Below the pieces are notes generated by a model. It saw nothing but the letters and a program-made list of their open reading frames with translations, had not been told where the DNA came from and did no database searches. The position numbers and the translations under genes are program-made. From Stigmatella ashevillena (GTDB taxonomy: Bacteria > Myxococcota > Myxococcia > Myxococcales > Myxococcaceae): a DNA stretch of 64,000 bases. The DNA lies in assembly GCF_028368975.1 (NCBI RefSeq), contig NZ_JAQNDM010000002.1, forward strand, positions 7,124,425-7,188,424, in the 5' to 3' direction. The stretch's first letter is position 1. Every line of letters starts with the position of its first letter. Below, in pieces: positions 42,001-55,646 of this stretch.

Positions 42001-42206
42001 GCATCAACTGGACGTTTGGGCCCAAGGTCCTCCATGCAGAGACCGTCGAGCGTCTGAGCTCGGCGTTCAATACCACCCTCCGCGCGATGATCCGGGAGCG
42101 CACGGAGCCCGCAGCCGCAGTCCGCGTCGCCGCCGATTTCCCAGCGGCACGCCTGAGCGCCAAGGACCTGAAGCGCGTCCTGACGCAGACAAAGAAGCCC
42201 CGCTGA
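33033..42206 (+). CDS. mchB: MchB-like NRPS: C-A-nMT-PCP-C-A-PCP-E (modules 1 and 2)
   Basis: A 3057-residue NRPS. Module 1: C1 (about 33-465; HH164-165xxxDG), A1 with an N-methyltransferase inserted (SAM loop EIGCGTG, 1042-1048), A10 Lys1434, PCP Ser1490. The A1 selectivity residues read by alignment to GrsA are D-F-W-N-I-G-M-V-H, identical to the published threonine code, so this module supplies N-methyl-Thr. Module 2: C2 (HH1687-1688), A2 starting near 2015 with code D-A-W-L-I-G-A-I-Y, closest among codes I remember to one of the leucine codes, PCP Ser2540 in the GGDS form typical before epimerases, and an E domain (HHLLVD at 2717-2722). The residue from module 2 is thus D-configured. C1 accepts the MchA chain. 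Its ATG overlaps the mchA stop; mchC starts 33 bases after it ends. Confidence 0.93.
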   Translation: MSSPRDSMSGLSIEEKRKLLAELMAKSGKSAPRIFPLSSGQKALWLLQQQEPEGAAYNTPFALRIHSQIDVGAFKRAFEMVAARHPSLRTTVASAADGQLLQTSHPVLEPHFAHIDASGWTAEQLQAAVVRAYRQPFSLERGPLLRGDLFSSRPDDHILLITVHHIVYDGWSAGILQGELTRIYQALSRGEQPALTPVTGSYADFVAQQAEMLAGAPGRAHWEYWQKKLSGELPVLALPADRSRSALAANRSGASSIKLQPELTHRIKELAQSAGATPFVVLLSAYAALLGRLARQEDLLIGSPTAGRPGAALHGVVGYFANAVALRADLSGAPSTRQLIARMRDVVHEALANQDFPFASLVERLGIARRPGVSPIFQASMSFHSSREGGDAMALWATPDEVTRVRWGNLELEPYPLSDQETQFDLTLEMWEVRGAFAGALRFNRALFNDATVGLWRGYFEKLLEQMVRAPDEPMARLALAEPVTAPQLQGDTHPGIPVDRAGSGTITAWFEAQAARTPDGAALSFGDVHLSYAELNARANVLAHELRSRGVGPESLVGICVERSAELVIAILGVLKAGGAYVPLDPASPRERLALILEDAEVSALVTETKRREELPTEKVSTIFVDAIQWQEGQREPNPAPGLTPDHAAYVIYTSGSTGRPKGVIVTHANATRLFTTTDALYGFGPGDVWTLFHSAAFDFSVWELWGALFYGGRLIVVPHWMTRSPEAFGELIAREGVTVLNQTPSAFRALLRAPSIADGVGGQGLKWIIFGGEALDAATVRPWFERYPNADTRLINMYGITETTVHVTYHQVTEADLASAASPIGRPIPDLVISLLDEHGQPVPDGVPGEMYVGGAGVARGYLKRPELTAQRFIKHPSSPGERLYRSGDLAIRQQDGTFTYLGRIDDQVKIRGFRIELGEIQSVLARHPAVADAYVSTYERSADDRRIVAYVVPKKGASEMLLSSSSNGGVGDTHVGEWKSLYDELYARSAGEPQTDPSFNIAGWNSSYSGAPLSAEAMKEWVNHTVQQVLDRAPSRVLEIGCGTGLLLTRIAPSTTAYWATDVSGVVVSMLQGVTKKTPGLEHAKLFHCAADQLDGIDFGSERFEAVILNSVIQYFPSAEYLARALESASARVSTGGFIFVGDVRNLRLLEAFHASIVLAQSSGTLEPHALKERVARRMAAEEELVLDPGFFWSLKQRIPRLSHVEIRPKRGVSLNELTRFRYDVLLHLDTPPASASDVAWEPGNVSLPELRSRLSSNGARRMGLRGIRNARVEAALEALASVSEQSPSRPGAFEKLRRRLLDRDAPFPANDPEPGVDPEALAQLAGELSFDVFLDWSRGGVDGSFDAVFTRRAAPGASAAAGSLTGPIALFGAAPDAVPEERHANDPLRDRLERRLEGDLRKKAQEQLPEYMVPASIMVIDAIPLTGNGKVDRRALPVPAAPQGLETAYVEPRTGEEEILVSIFSELLGAERVGVHESFFDLGGHSLLATQVVSRARAVFGVDVPLRTLFDSPTVAGLATAVQQLRKRSNAASLDFSPPMERTSQIPLSSSQERLWVLDRIEETRAPIYIIPLVLRLRGPLNQEALRQSLDWIIQRHEALRTRFPSVDGQPVQEIAEEMHAELPPSEDLGQGPRATEAEIAKLIQEQAGLEVSRPFDLARGPLFRMRLLRIAEGDHVLVLTMHHIISDGWSVGLLVRELAAGYNALRSQRELVLPALPAQYADFALWQRKMLREGALSESIEAHKQRLTGAPASLDLPGDRPRPETPSFKGGVVRFPVDRALTARLKEMSRREGATLYMTLLTAYAAYLSRLSGMQDLIIGSPVANRNRAATEPLIGFFVNTLALRVDLSGNPTFLELLTRVRRTALDAYADQDVPFEKLVEVAAPERSLSRQPLVQVMFALQNAPFSPPALDGLNVELLELDSITAKFDLTLSMQETADGLSGLLEYSAELFDRARIERMAEHLVVVLREVVEHPGRRIPELNILDAREAARLAEWAVGPSAPSVPSSVVEMFQAQAARTPDAIAIERGDLQLSYGELDRRSTHLAHHLVSLGFGPEKRAALCLPGSVEFIVSMLGVWKAGGAYVPVDPEYPEARIEHMLEDSSAELLLTVRAAGERPRFQGRTLWLDEEIPAHANPPALGLPSAGSAAYVIYTSGSTGKPKGAVLEHRGLANIAAASRQTFGLGTDSVVLQFASPSFDASVWEIAVALTSGARLVLPTAETSRAGEGLAALLTLKRISVTLLPPSTLAALPEGAYPDLRVLISGGEACTAELVKKWAVGSRRFFNAYGPTEATIYATLAELTPDQPGTPPLGRPLPGAVVRILDAAQRQVPIGVPGELCIGGVAVGRGYHGLESLTRERFIQDTFSAQPGARLYRSGDLARWRSDGGIDYLGRFDHQVKLRGYRIELGEVEAVISSHPGVQQALITVHKGQLAAYAVGRGGAVPTVQALREHAKARLPTYMVPVHILLLDAFPMTPNGKIDRKKLPDPVQAQATETFAAPQTPEEQILAEIWAAVLKKEPIGIHDNFFALGGDSILGLQIISRATQRGLRLRPRQLFEHQTIMELAKVASSTQILHAEQGRMTGSVPLTPIQCWYLEHERVEPHHFNMAVLMEVDPGLDLAVLRRAIDAVEDHHDALRLRYYRDGAVWRQEHAEGDACGIPLEAADVEGSVGLEEAITKLHRSLVLERGPLMRAAFLRLGPGSARLALVAHHLLVDAVSWAIILEDLLTVYGRLSTGQPAGLQPKTTSFQHWAKQLEAYATSPNVRAELDAWLAASRNEGPQALPLNNPGASDTVGEASTLESWLEADETQLLLSEVPTAYDVKVNEVLLAALAKTLSGWTGQNTVRIDVEGHGREFLFEDVDLSRTVGWFSSIFPLRLHIGAKENSREMLARVKDALRRIPSGGVGYGVLRYLSPDESIRSRLQSATQSGVAFNYLGQMGAIPSYGPFHGAAKEGVGPLNSARDVRPHRIEVNAGIEAGQRLRINWTFGPKVLHAETVERLSSAFNTTLRAMIRERTEPAAAVRVAADFPAARLSAKDLKRVLTQTKKPR

Positions 42207-42239: not shown

Positions 42240-45200
42240 ATGGATTCAATCGACGCGATCGCAGACATCTACGAGCTCGCGCCCATGCAGCACGGCATGC
42301 TGTTTCACTCGCTGCTGGATCCCAGCGCGGCCATGTATGTCGAGCAGTTGAGCTGCGAAGTGCGCGGCAATCTGCCGATCGAGCGGTGGAAGCAGGCGTG
42401 GCAGCACATGCTCGAGCGGCATGCGATCTTGCGCTCGGCGTTTCTCTGGGAGGGGCTTGAGAAGCCCGTCCAGGTTGTGGCGGCCGAGGCCGAAGTCCCA
42501 TGGCACGTCGAGGATCTCCGGCACCTCGGGGAGGAGGAGCAGCAGCGGCGCGTCAGCAGCTTCCTGCGAGAGGACAGCCTGCGAAGCTTCGACCTCAGCG
42601 CCGCGCCCTTGCTTCGCTGTGCGTTGCTCCGTCTGGGGGAGGATCGTTACCGCTTCGTGTGGACCTACCACCACCTCTTGTTGGACGGGTGGTGCTTCTC
42701 GATTGTCCTGCGCGAGGCGCTGGAGTTCTTCGATGGGGGCGCTGAGGCCCTGCCGCCTCCGCCCCGCCCCTATCGCGACTACATCTCCTGGCTTCAAGAG
42801 CAGGATCCGGCCCGGGCTGAGAGTTTTTGGCGAGAGAACCTCCGGGGCTTCGAGCAGCCCACGCCCTTGCCCTTCACGGAGCACCAGCAAGCCAGGGTGT
42901 CCGCCGGTAACGTGCAGCCCGAAGTCAGCTGGCATGTGCCGCAGGAGTTCGTGGCCCGCCTGGGAGAATTCGCCAAGAAGCATCGGCTGACGCTCAACAC
43001 CCTCCTTCAGGGCGCCTGGAGCCTGGTTCTCGCGAGGACGGCTGGCACGGACGACGTCGTCTTTGGTGTGACCGTCTCTGGCCGTCCCGCGGAGCTCGCG
43101 GGGGCCGAGTCGATCGTCGGGCTCTTCATCAATACCGTGCCTCTCCGAGGTCGGCTGACCGCTGGCGTGCCGGTCGGGTCGTTCCTGTCGTCCCTGCAGA
43201 CCCAGCAGAGGGCCATCGAGGCCTATGGCTACTCCTCGCTCGCTGACATCCAGACATGGTCGGACGCGCCGCGCGACCGCCCGCTCTTCGAGAGCCTGCT
43301 GGTGTTCGAGAACTTTCCGCTGGATCGCTCGACGCTGCTGAAGCGAAGTGGGTTCACGGTCAGCGAGATCGAAAGCCAGGGAGGGACCAGCTTCCCGCTG
43401 GCCTTGATGGCGATCCCGGGCGAGCAACTCGAACTGCGCCTGATGTTCGATGAGGGCCGTTTCACGCGCGCTGCGGTCGAGCGCATCATGCGTCTGATCG
43501 AGGTGGCGCTCTCATCGCTCATCACGGCGAAGAGGATCGATGAGATTGACCTGCTCGACGAGGCCGCCCGGGGATCATTGCGGGAGTGGAGCCAGAATCC
43601 GCGCACGTACGAACTCAACGAGCCAGTGCATGCGTTGATCGCGGGTGTGGCCCGCCGCTCACCGGATGCCACGGCGCTGGTGGGAGCGGATGGCCGACGG
43701 CTCACTTACAGGGAACTCGATGAGCACGCCGAACGCGTGGCATGGCGTCTGCGCCAGCTCGGCATCGAGCGCGAGGCGCGCATCGGGGTGGGCATCGGCA
43801 AGTCCGTGGAACTCATCGTGGGCATGCTGGGGGTGCTCAAGGCGGGGGGCGCCTACCTTCCGTTGGATCTCAACTACCCGGCCGACCGGCTTGCCTACCT
43901 CGTGCGGGATGCGTCGCCGTCCGCGATTCTCAACGTGGGGGTGGATCCGATCCCGGATACCCACATCCCGCGGATCGACGTCTCACAAGTCATGGCCGGG
44001 GAGAAGGCCCCTGCCGATTTCGTGCCAGAGCCCGTTCTGATGGAGAACCTGGCGTACGCCATCTACACGTCCGGTTCGACCGGGGCCCCCAAGGGGGTCC
44101 TCGTCTCGCACCGGAACATGATGAACCTGGTCTCCTGGTACGTCGAGGACGCCAGGCTCACCGCGGAGGACCGGGTCACGCAGGCTTGCAGCACCACGTT
44201 CGACGTCTCGGTCATGGACATCTGGCCGACGCTCGTGACCGGTGCCGCGCTCTATCTCGTCTCACCCGAATTGCTCTTGAGCCCCGCCGAGCTGCCGCGC
44301 TGGTTGACGGAACGCCAGATGACGGTGAGCTTTCTCCCGACGCCGATCGCCGAGGCCGCGCTCGCGCTCAAGTGGCCTGAGTCTTCCAAGCTCCGGCTGA
44401 TGATCACAGGCGGTGATCGCCTCCACGTCTTCCCGCCGCCAGACGTCCGTTTTCAGCTCATGAACATCTACGGTCCTGCCGAGACGACCGTGGCTTCCAC
44501 CGCCACCATCTTCGAGCCAGGGATCCAGGAAGGCTTGCCTTCCATTGGTCGGCCCATCGCCAATGATCGCATCTACATTCTGGACCGCACGCAGCGGCCC
44601 GTTGCGCCCGGCGTCCTGGGCGAGCTGTACATTGGCGGTATCGGTGTCTCCCGCGGATATCTGAACAGGCCCGAGCTCACCGCGACCCGTTTCGTCCCCG
44701 ATCCGTTCTCGGGCGAGCCTGGGGCGCGGATGTACGCGAGCGGAGATCTCGCGCACTTCCTCCCGGATGGGAACCTGGCGTTCCACGGCCGCCTGGACCG
44801 TCAGGTCCAGGTCCGAGGTGTCCGTGTCGAGCTCGGAGAGATCGAGGCCACGCTGGCCGAGCACCCTGGAGTCAGTGCCGCCGCGGTGGTGAGCGAGGCG
44901 CACCAGCAGAACGGCGATGTGCGTTTGATTGCCTTCGCCGCCTGCGCCGCTCCGAATCCACCGGATGCCACCGCCCTGACGGAGCACCTCTCGAAGAAGC
45001 TGCCCGACGCGTTTCTCCCGAGGCGCATCATCATCATCGGAGAACTCCCGCTCACGCCGAACGGCAAGGTTGACTACATCAAGCTCGAGGCACACGCCAA
45101 GGAGCTGCAGGACCGAAAGGAGCGCGTCGCGCCCAGGACGCCCCACGAGGAGATCCTCGCCGGGATTTGGAGCGCGGTGCTGGGGCGGGATCAGGTAGGG

Positions 45201-48200
45201 GTGGAAGACGATTTCTTCGCGCTCGGCGGCCACTCGCTCAAGGCGACGCAGGTCATCGCACGCGCCCGTGAGGCCTTCGGCGTAGAGCTGCCGGTCCGGG
45301 CGATCTTCGAGCGAAGGACGATCGCGCTCCTCGCCGAGGCCGTCTCTGGCCAGGGGAACGCCGCCGCGCTGATCCCTCGCATCGATCTGTCGGGCGACGT
45401 TCACCTCGCCCCAGGGCAAGAGAGCCTGTGGTTCATTGATGCGCTGGGCGGTAGCAGCGCGGCGTACAACGTGCCGCTCGTGATGCATCTCAATGGCGCG
45501 CTCGATCTCAGCGCCGTCACACAGGCGGTCTCTCTCCTCGTCGAGCGCCATGAGGCGCTCCGCACCACGTTCCAGGAGCAGTTGGGGACTCCCGTTCAGA
45601 GGATCCATGCAGCACCTGCCTCCGTGCTCTCGTGTGAGGAGGTCACCGACGAAGTGCTCGAGCAGCGGGTCGCGGAGGAGATCGCCACGCCCTTCACGCT
45701 GACGACGGGGCCGTTGTTCCGGGCTCGGCTCTTCCGGGTGGGGCCAGGGACGCATACGCTCGTCTTCAACCTGCACCACATCGTCGTGGACGCGTGGTCA
45801 CTCGGCGTCATGCTCCGGGAGTTCTGCACGGCGTACAGTGTGCTCTCGGGCGGAGGCGTGCCGGAGCTGCCAACGCTGCCGATCCGCTATGCCGACTGGG
45901 CCGAGTGGCAGCGGCAACGGCTCATGGCTGGCCGGCTCGAGGAAGGCCTCGGTTACTGGAGGCAGACCCTGAGGGGCGCTCCCCTGCTGCTCACGCTGCC
46001 TGCGGATCGCGCTCGCCCGACGCGCCAGAGCTTCCGTGGCAAGACACACGCCTTCGTCGTCGATGCTGAGATCGGGCGTCGCCTGGGAGCGCTCTCGCGG
46101 AACTCGGGCGCCTCGCTGTTCATGACGCTCCTGAGCGCCTTCGCTGCGTACCTCGGACGGCTCAGCGGCCAGGATGATCTGGTGATCGGCTCGCCCTCGG
46201 CCAACCGGGATCGAAGCGAGACCGAGGGAGTCATCGGCTACTTCCTCAATACGATCGCGCTGCGCATGGATCTGTCTGGGGATCCGTCCTTCACGGAACT
46301 CCTCCAGCGGGTTCGCAAGGTGGCGCTCGACGGCTTCGTGTACCAGGACATCCCCTTCGAGAAGGTGGTGGCCTCGCTCGAGCTGCCGCGCGCCCTGGCG
46401 CACAACCCCTTGTTCCAGGTGATGTTCGCCCTCCAGGGTCAGAGCGGGGGCGAGATTCAGTTGCCGGGAGTCCGCGCCACCCTGCCCGCGGCCGAGAGCC
46501 CGACGTCGAAGTTTGATCTCACGCTCTTTGTCGAGCCCCGGGCGGACGACGCCTTTGCGTGTCTCCTCGAGTACAACACTGACATCTTCGACGAGGATCG
46601 GATCCGCCGGATGGCCACGCACCTGGTCCGGGTGCTCGAGGCCGTGGCCGAGGAGCCGGAGCTGCGCATCTCGGAAGTCCCCCTCTTGGCTCCCGAGGAG
46701 CGGCAGCTCATCGCGCAGCTCAGCCAGCCGGGGCGCCCGTATGACGGCCGGACCTTGCTGGAGCTGTTCGAGAGACAGGTCGAGAAGACGCCTGATGCGG
46801 CCGCTCTCGAACATCGCGGTGAAGTGCGGACCTATCGCCAGCTCCGCCATGAAGCCGGACTCCTTGCGGACCGGCTCGCCGCGCTGGAAGCCGGTCCGGA
46901 CGTTCGGGTGGGCGTCTGCCTGGATCGCTCGATCCCTGCGCTGGTCTCTGTCCTTGCGGTCCTCAAGGCGGGGGCCACGTATGTGCCGCTGGATCCCACC
47001 GAGTCACCCGAGCGCCTCCGGTCCACGCTGGGGGATGCGAAGGCCCGCATCCTCATCACGGAGAAGAAGTACCGTGACCTGAGCACCCTGCAGAGCATCG
47101 AGAGCATCGTGGTGGATGGTGGCGCCGCGCCTGCGGTGAAGGCCCCGAGGCCCCGGGTGGAGCCCCACCACCTCGCCTGCGTGCTCTACGCCTCCGGCTC
47201 GGGTGGCGAGCCCAAGGGTGTCGCCATGCCGCACCGGGCGCTGATCAACCTGGTGGCCTGGCACACGCTTCAGCCCCGGCCTTTGCGGACGCTCCAGTAT
47301 GCCTTGCCCAACACCGGGACCTCGCTCCAGGAGATCTTCTCCACCTGGTGCTCGGGCGGCACGCTGGTCCTTGCGGGCGACGCCAACCGGCTCGCCCCGC
47401 GCGCGCTCGTCCAACTTCTCGAAGAGGCTCGTATTCAGCGCCTCTTCCTCCCCGCGGGAGTGCTTCATCCCCTTGCGCGTGAGGCCGTGAACAGCACCCG
47501 GCCGTTGCCGGGCCTGGAAGAGATCATCGCGGCGGGCGAGCAGCTCCGGATCACCGAGTCGATCCGAGGGTGGTTTGGGGCCAGCAAGAAGACGCTTCGC
47601 AGCCAATACACCCTCGCGGAGGTCTATGTCGCCGCGGCGCATGAGCTCACCGGCAGCCCCGAGAGCTGGCCGGGGCTTCCTCCCATTGGTCTGCCGATCC
47701 CCAACACCGCCGTCCACCTGCTGGACACCCACCATCTCCCTGTCCCCATCGGTGTGCCTGGAGAGATCTACATCTCCGGGGCATGCCTTGCCGAGGGCTA
47801 CCTGTCACGGCCAGAGCTCACCGCGGAGCGCTTCGTCGAACTGAGCGTCGATCCTCCCGTCCGCGCGTTCCTGACGGGCGATCTTGGACGGCTGTCCCAG
47901 GACGGAACACTTGAATTCCTCGGGCGCGCGGATGAACAGATCCTTGTCCGTGGCATTCACGTCGAGCCCGGTGAGGTCGAGCGTGCTCTGTGCGCTCACC
48001 CAGGCATCCTGGATGCCGTGGCTGTTGCCGTCGGCGATCCCTCGCGAGAGCAACGCCTCGTGGCTTACATCACGCCTGAGACCGCGCGGGCCGAGGAGCT
48101 GCCCGCGTTCCTCTCGGCGCGGATCCCCGAATACATGGTGCCCTCGCAGTTCGTGGTGCTCCCCGCGCTGCCCCGGACGCCGGGAGGCAAGGTGGATCGC

Positions 48201-51200
48201 CGTGCGCTTCCCGCGCCGGGCCAGCCCGGGCGGGGAGGGGCTGCCACGGGCCCTCGTACGGCCATGGAGGAGCTCGTCGCCCAGGCCTTCGAGCAGGTGC
48301 TGGGACGGAGCCCCGTGGGCCTCCACGAAGACTTCTTCCAACTGGGAGGCAACCCACGCCTGGCGTTGCAGGCCGTCGCGCGCATCAGCGCCGCTGTGAG
48401 CGCGGAGGTCCGGGTGTCGGATCTTCTCAAGAACCCTGCCGTTGCTTCGTTGAGCCGGGTGCTCAACGAACGGCACGGTCTTCGGACGCAGTCCCTCTCC
48501 GGGCTCGAGCACGCCCCGGAGAGCGACCGCATGCCCTTGTCGTTCTCGCAAGAGCGGTTCTGGTTCCTCGAGCAGCTCTATCCGGGCACCGCGGTCCACA
48601 ATCTGTCCATGGCGCTCCGGTTGAGGGGCGTGCTGGACACCGGTGCGCTCATCGAGAGCCTGTCCGGAATCATCCAGCGGCACCCCGTTCTTGGGATGCG
48701 CTTTATCGAGCGAGACGGCAGCGTGTGGCAGGAGCCTCGGGGGCAGGGGGAAGTGCCCTTCGAGTTGGCCGTGCCCGGCCCTGTCTCGGCCGAGGAGCTT
48801 CGCCGCTTGCTCGTGGAGGAGGCGGCGCATCCCTTCGATCTGGCCAACGGTCCGCTCTTCCGCACACGGCTCTTCCGGCTCGACGACCGTGAGCACGTCC
48901 TGGTCGCGACGATGCACCACGCCGTGGGCGACCACACGTCGCTTCGCGTCTTCGCGCGGGAGCTCTCTCAGCTCTACTCCGCGCGTGCCTCTGGACGGAC
49001 CGCACAACTGCCCAAGCTGTCCATTGACTACCTGCGCTACGCGCGCGAGCAGCGGCGGTACCTCCAGGGTGAGGCCTTGGAAGAGCGGCTCGGTTACTGG
49101 AAGCAGACCCTCAGCGGCGCGCCCGGCGCACTGGGCCTGCCCGCGGATCGGATGCGGCCGCCACGGCCGAGCTTCCGGGGCGCCACGCAACGGCTTGCGC
49201 TCAGCCGCGGGCTCAGCCGCGGGCTCGAAACGCTGAGCCATCGCTTGGGGGTGGCGGGACTCGAAGTCCTCTTGAGCGGCTTCGCCGCCTATCTCGCGCG
49301 CATCACGGGACAGGAGGACATCGTCATCGGTCTGCCGGTGACCCACCGTGAGCGTGAGGAGTTCAAGCCGCTGATCGGACGGTTCGAAGGGGCCCTGCCG
49401 ATCCGTGTCAACCTGGCCTCCAACCCCACCTTCGAGGAGCTCATTGCCCGCGTCCGCTATGCGACCCTCGGCGCGTACGCCCACCAAGAGGTTCCGCTCG
49501 AGAAGATCGTCGAAGCGGTCGATGCCGAGCGGGATCTGAGCCAGACGCCGTTGTTCCAGGTCATGCTCGCGCTCCACGACGCGCCCGAGGGCCGCGTGAA
49601 CCTGCCTGCGCTCAGCCTGGAGCCGCTCAGCCTGGAGCTTGGGACCGCGAAGTTCGACCTCGCGCTCATCTTCGAGCCCGTGGCTGGCGAGCTGACAGGC
49701 GTCATTGAGTACAGCGCGGACCTCTTCGATCCGGATCGCATCGAGCGGATGGCGGGGCACATCCTGACGATCTTCGAAGACGCCGTGGCCTACCCTGGGA
49801 AGCGGCTCTCGGAGCTGCTGCTCCTCCCCGAGGAGGAGCGAAGGACGGTCTCCGCGCTCGCCAAGGGGCGGGTGCTTCCACCGGCCCGCCAGGTTCCAGT
49901 CCACAAGCTCGTGGAGGAGCACGCGCTTCGTACGCCGGACTCGATCGCGCTCGAGCTGGGCGGAGCGGTCTTGACGTACGGTGAGCTGAATGAGCGGGCG
50001 AATCGCGCCGCGCACCAGCTCATGGCTTTCGGCGCTGGGCCCGAGAAGCTGGTCGCGCTGGCGGTCCCGCGCTCCTTCGAGCTGATCATCGGCTTGCTGG
50101 CGATCTGGAAGGCGGGCGCGGCCTACGTCCCGCTGGATCTCTCGTATCCCAAGGCCCGGCTCGACACCATCTTCGAAGACTCGGGCGCCAGGCTCCTGGT
50201 CAGTACACATTCCGCCGAGGCCAAGTGGCGGGTGCCGCACGCGCGCACGCTCTGGCTCGATGAACCCGCGGGCTCTGGACTCAGCAGCAACCCGGACAGC
50301 GAAGTCCGCATGGAGAATGCGGCCTACGTCATCTACACCTCAGGCTCCACGGGGCAGCCGAAGGGCGTCACCCTCGAGCACCGCGGGCTCGCGAATGTCA
50401 TCGAGATGCAGCGGCACGAGCTCGCCGCCGACTCCAGCTGCGTCATGCTTCAGTTCTCTTCGATCTCCTTCGACGTGTCGGTGTGGGAGATTGTCATGGC
50501 CCTGGCCAACGGCGGGAGGCTCGTACTGGCCCCGGCGGACACGTTGCTCGCGGGCGAAGAGCTGGCCAAGGTATTGCTCAACCACCGGGTCACGCACATG
50601 GTGCTGCCCCCGACCTCCTACGTGGCGCTCCCTTCCGACCGGGAGTACCCCTCGCTCCGGCAGTTGCTCTCGGCGGGTGAGGCCCTCCCTCCAGAGGTCG
50701 TGAACACGTGGGCAAAGCCCGGCGTGCAGTTCGTCAACGCGTACGGCCCAACGGAAGTGACCATCATTTCCACGCTCGGCCAGTGCAAGCAGGGCGATCC
50801 CGGCGCTCCAACGATCGGTCGGCCGGCCTTGAACCTGGAAGGGTATGTCCTCGACAGCCACGGTGAGCTGCTCCCCATCGGTGTTCCGGGAGAGCTGCAC
50901 CTGGGAGGCATCGGGGTCGCGCGGGGCTACTTGAACCGCGAGGAGCTCACGCGGCAGAAGTTCATTCCGCATCCGTTCAAGCCCTCCGAGCGACTGTACC
51001 GGAGCGGAGATCTGGTGCGGTGGCGCAAGGACGGCAACCTCGAGTACCTCGGACGCATTGATCACCAGGTCAAGCTCCGCGGCTACCGCATTGAGCTGGG
51101 CGAGATCGAAGCGGTGCTCGCCACCCACGCGGGGGTCGCGAAGGCAGTGGTGATCGTCCATGCGGCGGGCGCCTCGGGCGGCGTGAAGCTCCTCGTGGCC

Positions 51201-54200
51201 TATGTTGTCCCGGCCGGGCCAGTGGACGCGCACGCCATCCGAGATCACGCCAGGAAGCGGCTCCCGGAGTTCATGGTGCCCTCCGAGATCATCTTGATGG
51301 AGGAGCTGCCCCTCACCTCCAGCGGCAAGGTGGACAAGAAGCGCTTGCCCCCGCCTCGTCTCGAGGAGCACGAGGCTCGCGCGTCCTTCGAGGCCCCGCG
51401 CACTCCCACGGAGCAAACCTTGGCGGCGCTCTGGGAAGAGCTGCTCGAGAGGCGTCCGATCGGCACGGGGGACAACTTCTTCCAGTTGGGCGGCCACTCG
51501 CTCCTGGCGGCCCAGGTCATGAGCCGCGTCCGGAGGACTTTCGGCGTCGAGGTCCCGCTCTCGGCCATCTTCGAGCATCCAACGCTCGCGGCCCTGGCTT
51601 CGGTGATCGCAGCCAAGGAGGCTGCACCACAACTTCCGCCGCTGGTGCGGCTGGAGGGGACAGGGGATCGTCCGCTCTCGTTCGCGCAAGAGCGTCTGCG
51701 GTTCCTCGCGGAGTTCGAGGGGGACAGCGCGGCGTACAACATCCCGCTTGCGATCTCCGTGCGAGGAAAGCTCCACGAGGACGCGATGTCGCGAAGCCTC
51801 AAGCGGGTGGTGGATCGCCACCAGCCCCTCCGCACGCGCTTCCCGCTCGTGGAGGGCCAGCCGGTGGCCCGTCTGATCGAGGGAGACCTTCCCCTGGTGA
51901 CCGAGGATCTCCGTCGCTCCGGCGCGCCGTCTCTGGATGCGCGCCTGAGGGAGGAGTCCTCTCGTCCCTTCTCACTCGAGAGTGGCCCCGTCGTTCGCGC
52001 TCACCTGTTCAAGACCGCCGAGCAAGAGCATGTGCTCCTGGTGGTGATGCACCACATCGTCTCCGACGGCTGGTCGTTCGGCGTGATGATGCGCGAACTC
52101 TCGGCGATCTACGCGGCGGAGGTTCGGGGAGAGAAGCTTGAGCTCCCAGCGCTTCCCATCCAGTACGCGGACTACGCGGCATGGCAGCGGAGCTGGCTCG
52201 ATGGACACGTCCGTGACCAGCAGCTCGCCTATTGGCGGCGCGTGCTCGCGGGTGCCCCGGCCGTGCTGGAATTGCCGACGGATCGGCCCCGGCCCACGGT
52301 CCGGAGCCATCGCGGCGGGGTAGAGCCTTTGGAACTGGACCACGGCGCGGTGCAAGCGCTGACCGCGCTCTGTCGCCAGGAGGGCGTGACGTCATACATG
52401 GCGCTCCTCGCAGCCTTCGGCGCCTACCTCGGGCGTGTGAGCGGGCAGGACGATGTGGTCATCGGCTCGCCCTTCGCGGGCCGCCGGATCGCTGAGACAG
52501 AGCCGTTGATTGGCTTCTTCGTGAACACGCTGCCGCTTCGGGTCGATCTCGGTGGGGATCCCTCCTTTCTCGAACTCGTCCAGCGCGTGCGGCGTCAGGT
52601 GATCTCGGCGCACGAGAACCAGGACGTTCCCTTCGAGAAGCTCGTCGAGGTGCTCAAGCCGGAGCGCGCTCTGGGAACGAGCCCGATCTTCCAGGTCATG
52701 TTGGCGTTCCAGCAGACACGCTCCGAGGAACTGGAGCTGCCGGGTCTCGAGGTCAAGCCGGTGTCCATCCCGACCGGGACCGCCAAGTTCGATCTCACCC
52801 TCTCGTTGGGGGAGACGGCTCAGGGTGTCCAGGGCTGGCTCGAGTACGATCTGGACCTGTTCGACGCCCAGCGCGTTCAGGCGATGGTGCGCCAGCTGAC
52901 CGGTTTCATCGCGCGTCTTGCCAATGCCCCCGGGGCGAAGCTCTCGGAGGCGGAGCTGCTGAGCGCCGAGGAGCGCGTGAAGCTCACTCCCAGCGCTCCC
53001 GAGGAGATGCCCCGGCTCCCGGCGGTCCACGAGGTCATCGCGGCGCAGGCGAAGAAGAACCCCTCGGCCATTGCCGTCGAGGCCGAGGAGGGCTCGCTCA
53101 GCTACGGAGAGCTCGAGGCTCGGGCGGGTGCCATCGCCCACGAGCTTGTCCGGCGGGGTGTCACGCCGGGGACGCTGGTCGCCATCGCGGTGGAGCGCTC
53201 CCTGGGCATGATGGTGGGGCTGCTCGGGATCCTCAAGGCGGGGTGCGCCTACGTCCCGCTCGATCCTGCATACCCGCGCGAGCGGCTGGCGTTCATGCTC
53301 AAGGACAGCGGTGCCCGGGTGGTCATCACTCAGGAGCACCTCGCGCCAATGTTCCCAGACGCCGAGGTGCTCGTCCTCGGTGCGGCCAAGCAGGGCTCGT
53401 TCGAGCCACGGAGCGGAGCGCTCGCCTACTGCCTGTTCACCTCGGGCTCGACCGGCCAACCGAAGGGAGTCCTGATCGAGCACTCGAGCCTCGCCAATCA
53501 CATGGAGTGGATGAGCGAGGCCTTGCCGCTCGGCCCAGAGGACCGCGTGCTTCAGCGCACCTCGCTCAGCTTCGATGCCTCGGTCTGGGAGCTGTTCGCG
53601 CCGCTGATGGCTGGGGCGCGGCTCGTGCTCGCTCCGCACGGTCTGGGCGCGGACACGGAGCACCTGACCCGCGTGTTGCGTGAGCGCGGGATCACCGTGC
53701 TTCAGTTGGTCCCCTCGCTGCTGACGGCGCTGGTGGAGGAGCCTGGGCTTGCGGGTGTCTCCACGCTCCGGCGCGTGTGCGTGGGAGGCGAGCCCCTGCC
53801 TTCGGCCACGGTGAAGAAGCTCTTCAGCCTCTGCAACGTGGAGGTCTGGAACCTCTACGGCCCCACCGAGGCGACCATTGAGGCGCTCGCGCACCGGTGC
53901 TTGCCCGAGGCGGTAGGCGCACACGGTGCGGTCGAGCCCATCGGTCTGCCGATTCACCGCATGCAGGCGTTGATCCTGGATGGGAAGCTGCGTCCTGTTC
54001 CGGATGGATTGCCCGGTGAGCTCTACCTCTCCGGGCCAGGGCTGGCGCGCGGTTACTTGAACCGGCCTGAGCTGACCGAGTCGCGCTTCATCGAGCACTC
54101 CTTCCCAGGAGGCCCGAGGCTTCGGATGTACCGAACGGGTGACATCGTCCGGCGGCTGGCGGATGGGACGATCCTCTTCACCGGCCGCGCCGATCGGCAG

Positions 54201-55646
54201 GTCAAGCTGCGCGGCTATCGCATCGAACTCGGTGAGGTCGAAGCAGCGCTTGCCCGCCATCCGGCCGTGAGAGACGCGGTCGCGCTGGTGCGGGGCGCGA
54301 GCGGGGATGCCCGCCTGGTGGCTTTCGTGGTGCCCAAGGCGGGTGCGAAGCGGCCCGAGGCTTCCGAGCTTCGGAGCTTCGTGGAGCAGCAGCTCGCGGC
54401 CCACATGATCCCCGGACAGTTCGTCCTCCTGGAATCGCTGCCCCTGGCGCCCAACGGCAAGGTGGACTTCCGCGCCCTTGCCGCGATGGAGATTGCCGAG
54501 GAGCGCGCCGCCTCACGCGGCGGCCTCCCGCGCGACGCCCTGGAACTGGAGCTTGTGCGGCTGTTCGAGGAGATTCTCGGTGTCCCATCTGTGGGGATCC
54601 ACGACAGCTTCTTCGAGCTCGGCGGTCACTCCTTGCTCGCGCTCAAGCTGAAGCTCGCGGTCGAGAAGCGGTTCAATCGCCCGCTCCCCTTGGTCTCCTT
54701 GTTCCGGCACCCGGCGCCCGCGCAGCTCGCGGAACTCCTTCGGGGCGGTCCCTCGGCGGAGTCTCCGCTGGTTCCGCTCACGCCGTCTGCCCGCGCGCTC
54801 CTGGGCGCTGGAGCCTCGGGAAGCGGGCCTCGCCGCGCCCCCACGCTCTTTCTGGTTCCGGGAGGTGGCTCCACGCCGTTCTATCTCCTCTCCCTGGCAC
54901 GACACCTGGAGGGCGCCGCAGTGTTCGGCCTCCAGCCACGCGGGCTTGATGGAGAAGCCCCGCCCTACGAGACGGTCGAGGACATGGCCGCCGGGTACGC
55001 GGATGCGATCCTCGCTGTCCAGCCCGAGGGGCCCTACTTCGTGGGGGGCCACTCCATGGGAGGACAGATCGCCTATGAGATCGCGCAGGAGCTCAAGGCG
55101 CGGGGCCATGAAATCGGCCTCGTGGCGCTCCTGGACACCCTGGCGCCCTTCCCGGAGGCGACGCGGCCGGTGGGAGCGGGCTGGGACACCGCGCAATGGC
55201 TGGTTCACCTCGCAGGCATCATGGAGGGCTTCTTCAACGCCAAGATCGGTCTCGAGCTGGGCGAGGTGAGTGCCATGAGTGAGGCCGAGCGCCTCAATGC
55301 CTTCGTGGTGCGCTTGCAGTCCGCGGGAATCCTGCCCGCTGGCGCACAGCCAAGCCATGTGTTGGGGATCCTCAACGTCGCGCGGGCCCATGACGCGATG
55401 AACTACCAACCCCGCCGCAGACAGCAGGTCCCCCTCGCGGTGTTCCGCGCGGAGGACAGGGACGGGTCTGTTCCGCCAGAGCTCAAGGCGCTCTTCGCGG
55501 AAGACACGCTCGGTTGGAGCCGCTTCACGCGGGGGCCCAGCACGGCCTACCGCGTCCCAGGGTCGCACATGACGCTGATTCGAGAGCCCCATACCGCGGT
55601 CCTCGCCAAGCACCTGTGGGCGAGCCTCACCGGGAATCACTCCTGA
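42240..55646 (+). CDS. mchC: MchC-like NRPS, modules 3-6 with thioesterase; module 4 dead
   Basis: A 4468-residue NRPS: C-A-PCP / C-A*-PCP* / C-A-PCP / C-A-PCP-TE. Module 3: C3 HH144-145xxxDG, the type that accepts a D-residue donor; A3 code D-V-M-F-I-G-I-V-A (Asp655), no match known to me; PCP Ser999. Module 4 is degenerate and described separately. Module 5: C5 HHAVGDH (2226-2232), A5 code D-V-W-V-L-A-A-I-I (Asp2745), PCP Ser3087. Module 6: C6 HH3271-3272xxxDG, A6 code D-A-W-Q-C-G-L-I-E (Asp3779), near the known Gln code; PCP Ser4131. TE: Ser4272 in GHSMGG and a likely catalytic His4443. The TE should release the chain by attack of the Thr hydroxyl. The order and the dead module fit the S-type myxochromide synthetase. 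GAGAGGA precedes the ATG. Confidence 0.93.
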   Translation: MDSIDAIADIYELAPMQHGMLFHSLLDPSAAMYVEQLSCEVRGNLPIERWKQAWQHMLERHAILRSAFLWEGLEKPVQVVAAEAEVPWHVEDLRHLGEEEQQRRVSSFLREDSLRSFDLSAAPLLRCALLRLGEDRYRFVWTYHHLLLDGWCFSIVLREALEFFDGGAEALPPPPRPYRDYISWLQEQDPARAESFWRENLRGFEQPTPLPFTEHQQARVSAGNVQPEVSWHVPQEFVARLGEFAKKHRLTLNTLLQGAWSLVLARTAGTDDVVFGVTVSGRPAELAGAESIVGLFINTVPLRGRLTAGVPVGSFLSSLQTQQRAIEAYGYSSLADIQTWSDAPRDRPLFESLLVFENFPLDRSTLLKRSGFTVSEIESQGGTSFPLALMAIPGEQLELRLMFDEGRFTRAAVERIMRLIEVALSSLITAKRIDEIDLLDEAARGSLREWSQNPRTYELNEPVHALIAGVARRSPDATALVGADGRRLTYRELDEHAERVAWRLRQLGIEREARIGVGIGKSVELIVGMLGVLKAGGAYLPLDLNYPADRLAYLVRDASPSAILNVGVDPIPDTHIPRIDVSQVMAGEKAPADFVPEPVLMENLAYAIYTSGSTGAPKGVLVSHRNMMNLVSWYVEDARLTAEDRVTQACSTTFDVSVMDIWPTLVTGAALYLVSPELLLSPAELPRWLTERQMTVSFLPTPIAEAALALKWPESSKLRLMITGGDRLHVFPPPDVRFQLMNIYGPAETTVASTATIFEPGIQEGLPSIGRPIANDRIYILDRTQRPVAPGVLGELYIGGIGVSRGYLNRPELTATRFVPDPFSGEPGARMYASGDLAHFLPDGNLAFHGRLDRQVQVRGVRVELGEIEATLAEHPGVSAAAVVSEAHQQNGDVRLIAFAACAAPNPPDATALTEHLSKKLPDAFLPRRIIIIGELPLTPNGKVDYIKLEAHAKELQDRKERVAPRTPHEEILAGIWSAVLGRDQVGVEDDFFALGGHSLKATQVIARAREAFGVELPVRAIFERRTIALLAEAVSGQGNAAALIPRIDLSGDVHLAPGQESLWFIDALGGSSAAYNVPLVMHLNGALDLSAVTQAVSLLVERHEALRTTFQEQLGTPVQRIHAAPASVLSCEEVTDEVLEQRVAEEIATPFTLTTGPLFRARLFRVGPGTHTLVFNLHHIVVDAWSLGVMLREFCTAYSVLSGGGVPELPTLPIRYADWAEWQRQRLMAGRLEEGLGYWRQTLRGAPLLLTLPADRARPTRQSFRGKTHAFVVDAEIGRRLGALSRNSGASLFMTLLSAFAAYLGRLSGQDDLVIGSPSANRDRSETEGVIGYFLNTIALRMDLSGDPSFTELLQRVRKVALDGFVYQDIPFEKVVASLELPRALAHNPLFQVMFALQGQSGGEIQLPGVRATLPAAESPTSKFDLTLFVEPRADDAFACLLEYNTDIFDEDRIRRMATHLVRVLEAVAEEPELRISEVPLLAPEERQLIAQLSQPGRPYDGRTLLELFERQVEKTPDAAALEHRGEVRTYRQLRHEAGLLADRLAALEAGPDVRVGVCLDRSIPALVSVLAVLKAGATYVPLDPTESPERLRSTLGDAKARILITEKKYRDLSTLQSIESIVVDGGAAPAVKAPRPRVEPHHLACVLYASGSGGEPKGVAMPHRALINLVAWHTLQPRPLRTLQYALPNTGTSLQEIFSTWCSGGTLVLAGDANRLAPRALVQLLEEARIQRLFLPAGVLHPLAREAVNSTRPLPGLEEIIAAGEQLRITESIRGWFGASKKTLRSQYTLAEVYVAAAHELTGSPESWPGLPPIGLPIPNTAVHLLDTHHLPVPIGVPGEIYISGACLAEGYLSRPELTAERFVELSVDPPVRAFLTGDLGRLSQDGTLEFLGRADEQILVRGIHVEPGEVERALCAHPGILDAVAVAVGDPSREQRLVAYITPETARAEELPAFLSARIPEYMVPSQFVVLPALPRTPGGKVDRRALPAPGQPGRGGAATGPRTAMEELVAQAFEQVLGRSPVGLHEDFFQLGGNPRLALQAVARISAAVSAEVRVSDLLKNPAVASLSRVLNERHGLRTQSLSGLEHAPESDRMPLSFSQERFWFLEQLYPGTAVHNLSMALRLRGVLDTGALIESLSGIIQRHPVLGMRFIERDGSVWQEPRGQGEVPFELAVPGPVSAEELRRLLVEEAAHPFDLANGPLFRTRLFRLDDREHVLVATMHHAVGDHTSLRVFARELSQLYSARASGRTAQLPKLSIDYLRYAREQRRYLQGEALEERLGYWKQTLSGAPGALGLPADRMRPPRPSFRGATQRLALSRGLSRGLETLSHRLGVAGLEVLLSGFAAYLARITGQEDIVIGLPVTHREREEFKPLIGRFEGALPIRVNLASNPTFEELIARVRYATLGAYAHQEVPLEKIVEAVDAERDLSQTPLFQVMLALHDAPEGRVNLPALSLEPLSLELGTAKFDLALIFEPVAGELTGVIEYSADLFDPDRIERMAGHILTIFEDAVAYPGKRLSELLLLPEEERRTVSALAKGRVLPPARQVPVHKLVEEHALRTPDSIALELGGAVLTYGELNERANRAAHQLMAFGAGPEKLVALAVPRSFELIIGLLAIWKAGAAYVPLDLSYPKARLDTIFEDSGARLLVSTHSAEAKWRVPHARTLWLDEPAGSGLSSNPDSEVRMENAAYVIYTSGSTGQPKGVTLEHRGLANVIEMQRHELAADSSCVMLQFSSISFDVSVWEIVMALANGGRLVLAPADTLLAGEELAKVLLNHRVTHMVLPPTSYVALPSDREYPSLRQLLSAGEALPPEVVNTWAKPGVQFVNAYGPTEVTIISTLGQCKQGDPGAPTIGRPALNLEGYVLDSHGELLPIGVPGELHLGGIGVARGYLNREELTRQKFIPHPFKPSERLYRSGDLVRWRKDGNLEYLGRIDHQVKLRGYRIELGEIEAVLATHAGVAKAVVIVHAAGASGGVKLLVAYVVPAGPVDAHAIRDHARKRLPEFMVPSEIILMEELPLTSSGKVDKKRLPPPRLEEHEARASFEAPRTPTEQTLAALWEELLERRPIGTGDNFFQLGGHSLLAAQVMSRVRRTFGVEVPLSAIFEHPTLAALASVIAAKEAAPQLPPLVRLEGTGDRPLSFAQERLRFLAEFEGDSAAYNIPLAISVRGKLHEDAMSRSLKRVVDRHQPLRTRFPLVEGQPVARLIEGDLPLVTEDLRRSGAPSLDARLREESSRPFSLESGPVVRAHLFKTAEQEHVLLVVMHHIVSDGWSFGVMMRELSAIYAAEVRGEKLELPALPIQYADYAAWQRSWLDGHVRDQQLAYWRRVLAGAPAVLELPTDRPRPTVRSHRGGVEPLELDHGAVQALTALCRQEGVTSYMALLAAFGAYLGRVSGQDDVVIGSPFAGRRIAETEPLIGFFVNTLPLRVDLGGDPSFLELVQRVRRQVISAHENQDVPFEKLVEVLKPERALGTSPIFQVMLAFQQTRSEELELPGLEVKPVSIPTGTAKFDLTLSLGETAQGVQGWLEYDLDLFDAQRVQAMVRQLTGFIARLANAPGAKLSEAELLSAEERVKLTPSAPEEMPRLPAVHEVIAAQAKKNPSAIAVEAEEGSLSYGELEARAGAIAHELVRRGVTPGTLVAIAVERSLGMMVGLLGILKAGCAYVPLDPAYPRERLAFMLKDSGARVVITQEHLAPMFPDAEVLVLGAAKQGSFEPRSGALAYCLFTSGSTGQPKGVLIEHSSLANHMEWMSEALPLGPEDRVLQRTSLSFDASVWELFAPLMAGARLVLAPHGLGADTEHLTRVLRERGITVLQLVPSLLTALVEEPGLAGVSTLRRVCVGGEPLPSATVKKLFSLCNVEVWNLYGPTEATIEALAHRCLPEAVGAHGAVEPIGLPIHRMQALILDGKLRPVPDGLPGELYLSGPGLARGYLNRPELTESRFIEHSFPGGPRLRMYRTGDIVRRLADGTILFTGRADRQVKLRGYRIELGEVEAALARHPAVRDAVALVRGASGDARLVAFVVPKAGAKRPEASELRSFVEQQLAAHMIPGQFVLLESLPLAPNGKVDFRALAAMEIAEERAASRGGLPRDALELELVRLFEEILGVPSVGIHDSFFELGGHSLLALKLKLAVEKRFNRPLPLVSLFRHPAPAQLAELLRGGPSAESPLVPLTPSARALLGAGASGSGPRRAPTLFLVPGGGSTPFYLLSLARHLEGAAVFGLQPRGLDGEAPPYETVEDMAAGYADAILAVQPEGPYFVGGHSMGGQIAYEIAQELKARGHEIGLVALLDTLAPFPEATRPVGAGWDTAQWLVHLAGIMEGFFNAKIGLELGEVSAMSEAERLNAFVVRLQSAGILPAGAQPSHVLGILNVARAHDAMNYQPRRRQQVPLAVFRAEDRDGSVPPELKALFAEDTLGWSRFTRGPSTAYRVPGSHMTLIREPHTAVLAKHLWASLTGNHS
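45378..48480 (+). other. Degenerate module 4 of MchC (inactive A and PCP domains, proline relic)
   Basis: This part of mchC encodes C4, A4 and PCP4. The PCP core reads LGGNP where active carriers read LGG[HD]S: the phosphopantetheine serine is Pro2039 (codon 48354-48356). In A4 the substrate-amine Asp is Gly1693 (codon 47316-47318), the A5 core is QYTLAE (1789-1794) instead of xYGPTE, and the A3 core is YASGSGGEPKG. The remaining selectivity residues read (G)-T-Q-F-I-A-Q-V-A, which keeps Q, F, I, A and V of the known proline code D-V-Q-F-I-A-H-V-V. C4 keeps its histidines (HHIVVDA, 1179-1185). The reading frame is intact throughout, so the module is made but must be skipped. Confidence 0.88.
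49201..49224 (+). repeat. In-frame 12-bp tandem duplication in C5 of mchC
   Basis: The unit CTCAGCCGCGGG occurs twice head to tail and encodes LSRG-LSRG. The duplication adds four residues to a surface segment of the C5 domain and keeps the frame. Confidence 0.8.
49609..49638 (+). repeat. In-frame 15-bp tandem duplication in C5 of mchC
   Basis: The unit CGCTCAGCCTGGAGC occurs twice head to tail and encodes a repeated LSLE segment (LSLEPLSLELG). It lies just before the TAKFDL motif of the C domain and keeps the frame. Confidence 0.8.

What the first reader, a model, noticed from the sequence alone, without database searches (positions are those of the whole stretch)
45378..48480. Skipped module 4 shows decay in A as well as PCP, with a readable proline fossil
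The carrier serine is Pro2039, the amine-binding Asp is Gly1693, and the A5 core is changed, yet Q-F-I-A-x-V of the proline code remains. This tells the history: a proline-adding hexapeptide line (as in A-type myxochromides) lost the carrier site, and the A domain then drifted. The reading frame has stayed open over about 3.1 kb, suggesting that the domains are still needed as structure or as a spacer.
Basis: partly seen in the sequence, partly recalled or inferred. Interest (0 to 1): 0.75.

Follow-up and report, generated by a model that had tools for sequence, protein, structure and literature searches.

The report
Dead proline-adding stretch in myxochromide synthetase
A peptide-building enzyme of a Stigmatella bacterium carries a worn-out section that once added proline; the section is bypassed but still kept in shape, and the wear extends into the next joining domain, which hints at which part now bridges the gap.

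Summary
In MchC (42240-55646, +) PCP4 has Pro2039 where the other carrier domains have Ser, and A4 has lost the P-loop, Asp (Gly1693) and A5 cores; its code reads GTQFIAQV. All four mch clusters found in this genus share this. Nine of nine Myxococcus-type clusters keep intact motifs and the proline code DVQFIAHV, so proline ancestry is well supported. In a codon model A4 is the most relaxed of 15 segments (omega 0.153 against 0.060), yet far from neutral, and A4-PCP4-C5 has no indels: the fold still seems selected. Two corrections. First, the decay is not C4-A4-PCP4: C4 keeps both His and Asp, while the next domain, C5, has lost HHxxxDG(W) (Gly and Trp in 4 of 4, second His in 3 of 4). The dead unit is probably A4-PCP4-C5, with C4 joining residue 3 to alanine on PCP5; this is inferred. 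Second, the order 'carrier first, A domain later' cannot be resolved. Skipping of module 4 in myxochromide S has been published since 2005, and a 2025 paper mentions the altered C5 motif, so this is a known system with added detail.

The parts
42240..55646 (+). mchC, four-module NRPS subunit C3-A3-PCP3-C4-A4-PCP4-C5-A5-PCP5-C6-A6-PCP6-TE (4468 aa); modules 1 and 2 are in mchB
   Evidence: ORF list, Pfam, motifs; boundaries between domains are mine, approximate
45378..46739 (+). C4: condensation domain with both active-site His and Asp, HHIVVDAWS; likely catalyst of the skipping bond (inferred)
   Evidence: no lost column at the 95% level in the four Stigmatella
45774..45800 (+). C4 active-site motif HHIVVDAWS
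46740..48224 (+). A4: dead proline-type adenylation domain
47184..47222 (+). A4 P-loop LYASGSGGEPKGV (LYTSGSTG[KR]PKGV in Myxococcus-type)
47313..47333 (+). A4 core TGTSLQE (FDVSFQE in Myxococcus-type); Gly1693 replaces the amine-binding Asp
47601..47621 (+). A5 core motif of domain A4, SQYTLAE (NHYGPTE in Myxococcus-type)
48225..48479 (+). PCP4: carrier domain without the phosphopantetheine serine
48354..48356 (+). Pro2039 codon in place of the carrier Ser
48480..49874 (+). C5: condensation domain with damaged active site
48915..48941 (+). C5 motif HHAVGDHTS (HHTVGDGWS in Myxococcus-type; HQ in three other Stigmatella)
49875..51629 (+). A5-PCP5: intact alanine-type module that supplies the next residue; A5 has the lowest Stigmatella omega of the 15 segments modelled (PCP5 was not modelled)

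Best explanation
Module 4 of MchC is the remnant of a proline module inherited from a hexapeptide (A-type) line. It can neither activate proline (A4 lost its ATP and amine-binding cores) nor hold any residue (PCP4 lacks its Ser), so the chain on PCP3 is joined directly to alanine on PCP5 and a pentapeptide results. The A4-PCP4-C5 stretch is kept folded by purifying selection because it lies inside one giant protein, where a misfolded insert of about 1,045 residues would harm the rest. Shown here: motif losses, shared ancestry, relaxed but non-neutral selection. Established by others for S. aurantiaca: the skipping itself. Inferred: the reason for retention, and that C4, not C5, makes the bridging bond.
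For: Orthologs 83-85% (three other Stigmatella) and 62-63% (nine Myxococcus-type) identical in A4; DVQFIAHV in 9 of 9 Myxococcus-type clusters against G[TA]QFIAQV in 4 of 4 Stigmatella; PCP4 Ser to Pro in 4 of 4; 13-15 of 57 conserved A columns lost; A4 omega 0.153 in Stigmatella against 0.060, LRT 36.9, p = 1.3e-9, the largest omega and ratio of 15 segments; omega = 1 rejected for A4 (2dlnL 326) and C5 (310) (A4, A5, C4, C5 refitted); no gap columns among the four in A4, PCP4 or C5. G037 carries HQAVGDPAS, the C5 motif that PMC12192607 gives for the published mch cluster, so it is probably S. aurantiaca DW4/3-1, the experimental case.
Against: No chemistry or enzyme assay was possible, and the window strain's product is unknown. 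The simple pairwise dN/dS does not single out A4: between the window and G037, C5 (0.281) and PCP2-E (0.246) exceed A4 (0.231), and between the window and G036, A2 and A3 (0.377 each) exceed A4 (0.250). Absence of indels is not special: 11 of the 12 MchC segments have none among the four. PCP4 shows no relaxation within Stigmatella (omega 0.094 against 0.099; 85 codons, low power). C4 shows as much relaxation as C5 (ratio 1.74 each), so rates do not say which C domain works. The window's own C5 keeps both His.
Confidence: 0.88

Rival explanations
1. C5, not C4, makes the bridging bond: PCP3 docks directly at the donor side of C5 and C4-A4-PCP4 is the skipped unit (the textbook 'module 4' reading). 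The altered C5 motif is an adaptation to accept a distant donor.
For: The window's C5 keeps HH. A C domain with HQxxxDM can be active (streptothricin ORF18, in PMC11546977, passages), and mutation of the second His does not always abolish activity (same source). PMC12192607 suggests altered C domains help chain transfer (passages). C4 and C5 relaxation ratios are equal. By total conserved columns Stigmatella C5 is only slightly worse than intact C5.
Against: Four of nine motif columns of C5 differ among four Stigmatella; none of the six other HHxxxD motifs found in MchB and MchC varies at more than one. The second His is absent in 1 of 148 background C domains, and that one lacks both His. An adapted site should be conserved, not drifting.
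Confidence: 0.33
2. The tripeptidyl chain is passed through PCP4 before reaching PCP5.
For: A review words the proposed mechanism this way (PMC4849084, passages); carrier-to-carrier handover is cited for a polyketide synthase in PMC5984369 (passages).
Against: PCP4 has no Ser for the cofactor in 4 of 4 Stigmatella.
Confidence: 0.03
3. A4 is not dead but has been retuned to another substrate or role.
For: Glu of the A5 core, the TGD of A7 and the A10 Lys remain; omega is well below 1.
Against: P-loop, Asp and A5 cores are lost together and still vary within Stigmatella; with PCP4 lacking Ser there is no carrier to load.
Confidence: 0.05
4. The retained fold has no positive role such as a spacer; omega below 1 only reflects selection against harmful misfolding. 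(A question of why it is kept, separate from the three rivals above.)
For: Selection against misfolding gives the same pattern as a spacer role; the data cannot separate them.
Against: None from these data; only shortage of time is unlikely, since dS is 0.17 to 0.40 between Stigmatella pairs in A4.
Confidence: 0.4

Closest known systems
Myxochromide S synthetase mchABC of Stigmatella aurantiaca DW4/3-1
   Same: Same genes and module order, skipped module 4; same PCP4 Pro and A4 Gly in the probable DW4/3-1 genome G037
   Different: Window strain is another genome (A4 85% identical to G037); its C5 keeps HH but has DHTS, where G037 has HQ and DPAS
Myxochromide A synthetase of Myxococcus (A-type, six modules)
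   Same: Same architecture, 62-63% identity in A4
   Different: Module 4 intact, code DVQFIAHV, LGGHS in PCP4, HHTVGDGWS in C5
Myxochromide C-type Myxococcus clusters (here G059, G077; type assigned by me from the description in PMC9581180)
   Same: Five modules, intact proline module
   Different: Shortening by a real deletion: no A5-PCP5, front of C5 fused to the end of C6
14-module peptaibol synthases with skipped modules (Trichoderma; PMC12192607, passages)
   Same: Natural module skipping in an NRPS
   Different: Fungal; modules 4 to 6 proposed as skipped

Membership tests
myxochromide (mch) gene cluster | mchA PKS followed by NRPS genes mchB and mchC | tested here: met
   orthologs in 13 of 96 family genomes by mchA, the same 13 that match A4-PCP4 at 60% or more and the MchC end at 72% or more
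myxochromide S-type synthetase (module 4 skipped) | six modules present, PCP4 without Ser | tested here: met
   Two A and two carrier domains in MchB, four of each in MchC; Pro2039
myxochromide S-type synthetase (module 4 skipped) | pentapeptide product without proline | not testable with these tools
   No chemistry for this strain
proline-activating A domain | Asp235-type residue and DVQFIAHV-like code with intact core motifs | tested here: not met
   GTQFIAQV; P-loop, Asp and A5 cores lost; it descends from one but is not a working one
elongation condensation domain (C5) | HHxxxDG active site | tested here: not met
   HHAVGDHTS here; HQ in 3 of 4 Stigmatella
elongation condensation domain (C4) | HHxxxDG active site | tested here: inconclusive
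   HHIVVDAWS: both His and Asp kept, Gly is Ala; Ala at this place in 15 of 148 background domains and in 9 of 9 Myxococcus-type C4

The most novel reading that the evidence does not exclude
The unit that evolution has switched off is not a module (C-A-PCP) but the A4-PCP4-C5 block. C4 reaches over about 1,045 inert residues to join the chain on PCP3 with alanine on PCP5, while C5 decays. This would show in nature that an assembly line can be shortened by silencing an A-PCP-C unit without deleting it. It would also show that the HHxxxDA motif of C4, pointed to in a 2025 paper, is not the cause of skipping, since it is equally present in the nine Myxococcus-type relatives whose module 4 is intact.
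Probability: 0.55. Interest if true: 0.6.

Novelty: already known. Interest (0 to 1): 0.4.

Why it matters
Natural module skipping in NRPSs is called extremely rare (PMC12192607, passages), and which condensation domain bridges the gap is not settled in the passages I could read. Four Stigmatella clusters with the same dead carrier but a still-drifting C5 make that question directly testable with two point mutants. The selection result also bears on engineering: silent modules are kept folded, so switching a unit off may be gentler than cutting it out.

Tried and rejected
Structure prediction of A4-PCP4-C5 with 8 orthologs gave mean pLDDT 40.8. The alignment was too shallow, so nothing is concluded from it. 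A search of solved structures with A4 only showed that it is an ordinary A domain by sequence (67 chains at 1e-30 or better); it was not used to place the code.

Rates to decide between C4 and C5: both have ratio 1.74, so no decision. Pairwise dN/dS does not single out A4 in every pair; only the branch model does.

Overall conservation of C5: not an outlier by total count. At the 95% level the window's C5 loses 1 of 14 columns, the other three lose 2, and the five Myxococcus-type C5 printed lose 1. At the 80% level Stigmatella C5 loses 13-16 of 50 columns against 11-12 in the three Myxococcus-type C5 printed. Only the active-site motif stands out. In the same A-domain count A3 of the window and G037 loses 3 columns (20 of 141 background domains as bad), and A1 counts 10 because its methyltransferase insert breaks the alignment.

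HHxxxDA of C4 as the skipping determinant: rejected, present in 9 of 9 Myxococcus-type clusters.

Original papers (Wenzel 2005 and 2006, Burgard 2017, Yan 2018) are not held, so I cannot say which of these motif losses they already list. Named genome collection: the one scan, with two short patterns, returned 49 loci, 4 of them mch clusters. No further mch cluster, such as the D-type reported from Hyalangium, appeared.

Rows dropped: A domains 257 of 324 hits kept, C 252 of 354, PCP 264 of 274 (stricter inclusion E-value for A and C, then at least 85% coverage); then non-mch representatives under 90% identity: 141, 148, 126. The background comes from loci fetched for other purposes and is not a random sample. 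Codon models used 8 of 13 genomes and 15 segments; the rest of MchA, PCP1, PCP2-E, PCP3 and PCP5 were not modelled. One search printed 11 of 13 genomes, one search printed 9, one search printed 7. One fit (A5) was not flagged as converged and was repeated with the same result.
Full report
What is there. The window holds a myxochromide cluster: mchA 26518-33036, mchB 33033-42206, mchC 42240-55646, all on the + strand (Pfam; the gene names are by architecture and recall). MchC is one open frame of 4468 aa with four C, four A and four carrier domains and a thioesterase. The given interval 45378-48480 covers C4, A4 and PCP4.

Check of the residues. Carrier motifs are LGGHS in PCP3, PCP5 and PCP6 but LGGNP in PCP4, so Pro2039 stands where Ser should be. 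Gly1693 stands in NTGTSLQE, and the A5 core reads SQYTLAE. The eight-residue code of A4 is GTQFIAQV.

Relatives. The end of MchC matched in 19 genomes, the same 13 at 72% or more and six at 41-45%, and 600 aa of MchA matched in the same 13. Three of the seven genomes of the window's genus have no mch ortholog by these searches. I call the nine 'Myxococcus-type'. I fetched and joined all 12 other clusters. G059 and G077 have a short MchC of 3434 aa without A5-PCP5, which fits the C-type (five modules) described in PMC9581180 (passages). G037 is a single contig of 10,260,756 bases, its C5 motif HQAVGDPAS equals the HQxxxDPAS that PMC12192607 quotes for the mch cluster of Wenzel 2005, and none of the other 12 clusters has it; S. 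aurantiaca DW4/3-1 is listed as 10.3 Mbp in one contig (PMC8538405, passages). I therefore take G037 as DW4/3-1 and the genus as Stigmatella.

Decay of A4 and PCP4. All four Stigmatella clusters share PCP4 Pro, TG[TA]SLQE and SQYT[LV]AE; all nine Myxococcus-type clusters have Ser, FDVSFQE and NHYGPTE. The P-loop is also lost (LYASG[SA][GE]GEPKGV against LYTSGSTG[KR]PKGV). Against 141 background A domains, Stigmatella A4 departs from 13-15 of 57 columns that are at least 95% conserved; 2 of 141 reach that, while A5 and A6 of the same proteins depart from 0-1 and A3 from 1-3. The code is DVQFIAHV in 9 of 9 Myxococcus-type and GAQFIAQV or GTQFIAQV in 4 of 4 Stigmatella. [quoted passage not shown] Since several lost motifs are unlikely to be rebuilt, I read the direction as loss from a proline module (inference).

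Selection. A branch-wise codon model (my own script, 8 genomes) gave A4 an omega of 0.153 within Stigmatella against 0.060 within the Myxococcus-type group (LRT 36.9, p = 1.3e-9), the largest omega and the largest ratio of 15 segments; A5 has 0.044 against 0.050 and A6 0.065 against 0.065 (A4, A5, C4 and C5 refitted with the same result). C5 has 0.131 against 0.075 (p = 0.0014) and C4 0.107 against 0.061 (p = 0.0009). A2, A3 and C3 also show ratios of 1.45-1.62 with p below 0.05, and PCP4 shows none (0.094 against 0.099). Omega = 1 within Stigmatella is rejected in all 15 segments; for A4 2dlnL is 326 and for C5 310. Simple pairwise dN/dS is less clear: A4 is 0.23-0.30 in four Stigmatella pairs, but C5, PCP2-E, A2 or A3 exceed it in some pairs. 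There are no gap columns among the four in A4, PCP4 or C5, as in all but one of the 12 MchC segments. So A4 is relaxed but still held by purifying selection, most likely for fold. The stem between the two groups is long and close to saturation in several segments, so its omega values are not used.

C5. The C domain behind PCP4 reads HHAVGDHTS in the window, HQAVGDPAS in G037 and HQAVSDHAS in G036 and G038, where all nine Myxococcus-type clusters have HHTVGDGWS. The second His is present in 147 of 148 background C domains and the Gly is Gly or Ala in 143 of 148. Four of nine motif columns vary among the four Stigmatella, while none of the six other HHxxxD motifs found in MchB and MchC varies at more than one. 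C4 keeps both His and Asp in 13 of 13. The simplest reading is that C4 now joins the chain on PCP3 to alanine on PCP5 and C5 is no longer needed. Against it: an HQ-type C domain can be active (PMC11546977, passages), the window's own C5 keeps HH, and total deviations of C5 are only slightly above those of intact C5. I give this reading 0.55-0.6.

Order of events. PCP4 and A4 core losses are in all four, so their order is unknown. C5 His loss is in three of four and does not fit the mch gene tree ((G000,G037),(G036,G038)), so it arose twice, or was regained or exchanged; this suggests that it is younger (inference). In the A4, C6 and A6 segments that grouping is not recovered by the segment tree.

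What is known. Module skipping in myxochromide S is published (Wenzel 2005, 2006; seen only as cited). One 2025 paper states the altered motifs of C4 (HHxxxDAWS) and C5 (HQxxxDPAS) and suggests that such domains help the transfer (PMC12192607, passages). My data speak against a role for the C4 change, since the same DAWS is in nine of nine relatives whose module 4 is intact. The wording in PMC4849084 that the chain is transferred to PCP4 does not fit a carrier without Ser. In the listings of searches and the passages read I met no statement on selection or on C5 decay across species, but the primary papers are not held, so I claim no priority.

Several facts were mended (the pairwise dN/dS results, the indel control, the PCP4 and A3 counts, the tree wording); none required a change of odds.

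Noticed in passing
window about 39033-40532 (A2 of mchB) and 43605-45089 (A3 of mchC): A2 and A3 codes differ between Stigmatella clades: DAWLIGAI and DVMFIGIV in the window and G037, but DVWCTAAV and DAWFLGNV in G036 and G038; A3 identity of the window to G036 and G038 is only 65-66% while A4-A6 are 83-93%. This suggests different residues 2 and 3 and an exchange of A-domain sequence.
   Followed up: partly
L064 (contig BNCN01000004.1): A record titled Comamonas sp. KCTC 72670 carries a Myxococcus-type mch cluster; its contig length equals that of G066, which the genome set places in the window's family, so the title looks mislabelled.
   Followed up: no
L042 and L043 (G077, G059 mchC): These short MchC proteins lack A5-PCP5 and join the front of C5 to the last part of C6, a natural fusion inside the condensation domain.
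   Followed up: partly
window 48480-49874 (C5): C5 has Gly at a column where at least 95% of background C domains have Arg, in all nine C5 rows printed; PMC11546977 says that Gly at a conserved gating Arg is typical of DCL domains (passages), although no epimerase precedes C5. That the two positions are the same is my guess.
   Followed up: no
own genus genomes G039, G040, G041: Three of the seven genomes of the window's genus have no mch ortholog by A4-PCP4, the MchC end or MchA.
   Followed up: no
mchA start region of G065, G075, G076, G077, G078: In 5 of 13 clusters the MchA match runs through one TAG near its start; probably the match begins upstream of the true start, since long mchA frames follow.
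   Followed up: no
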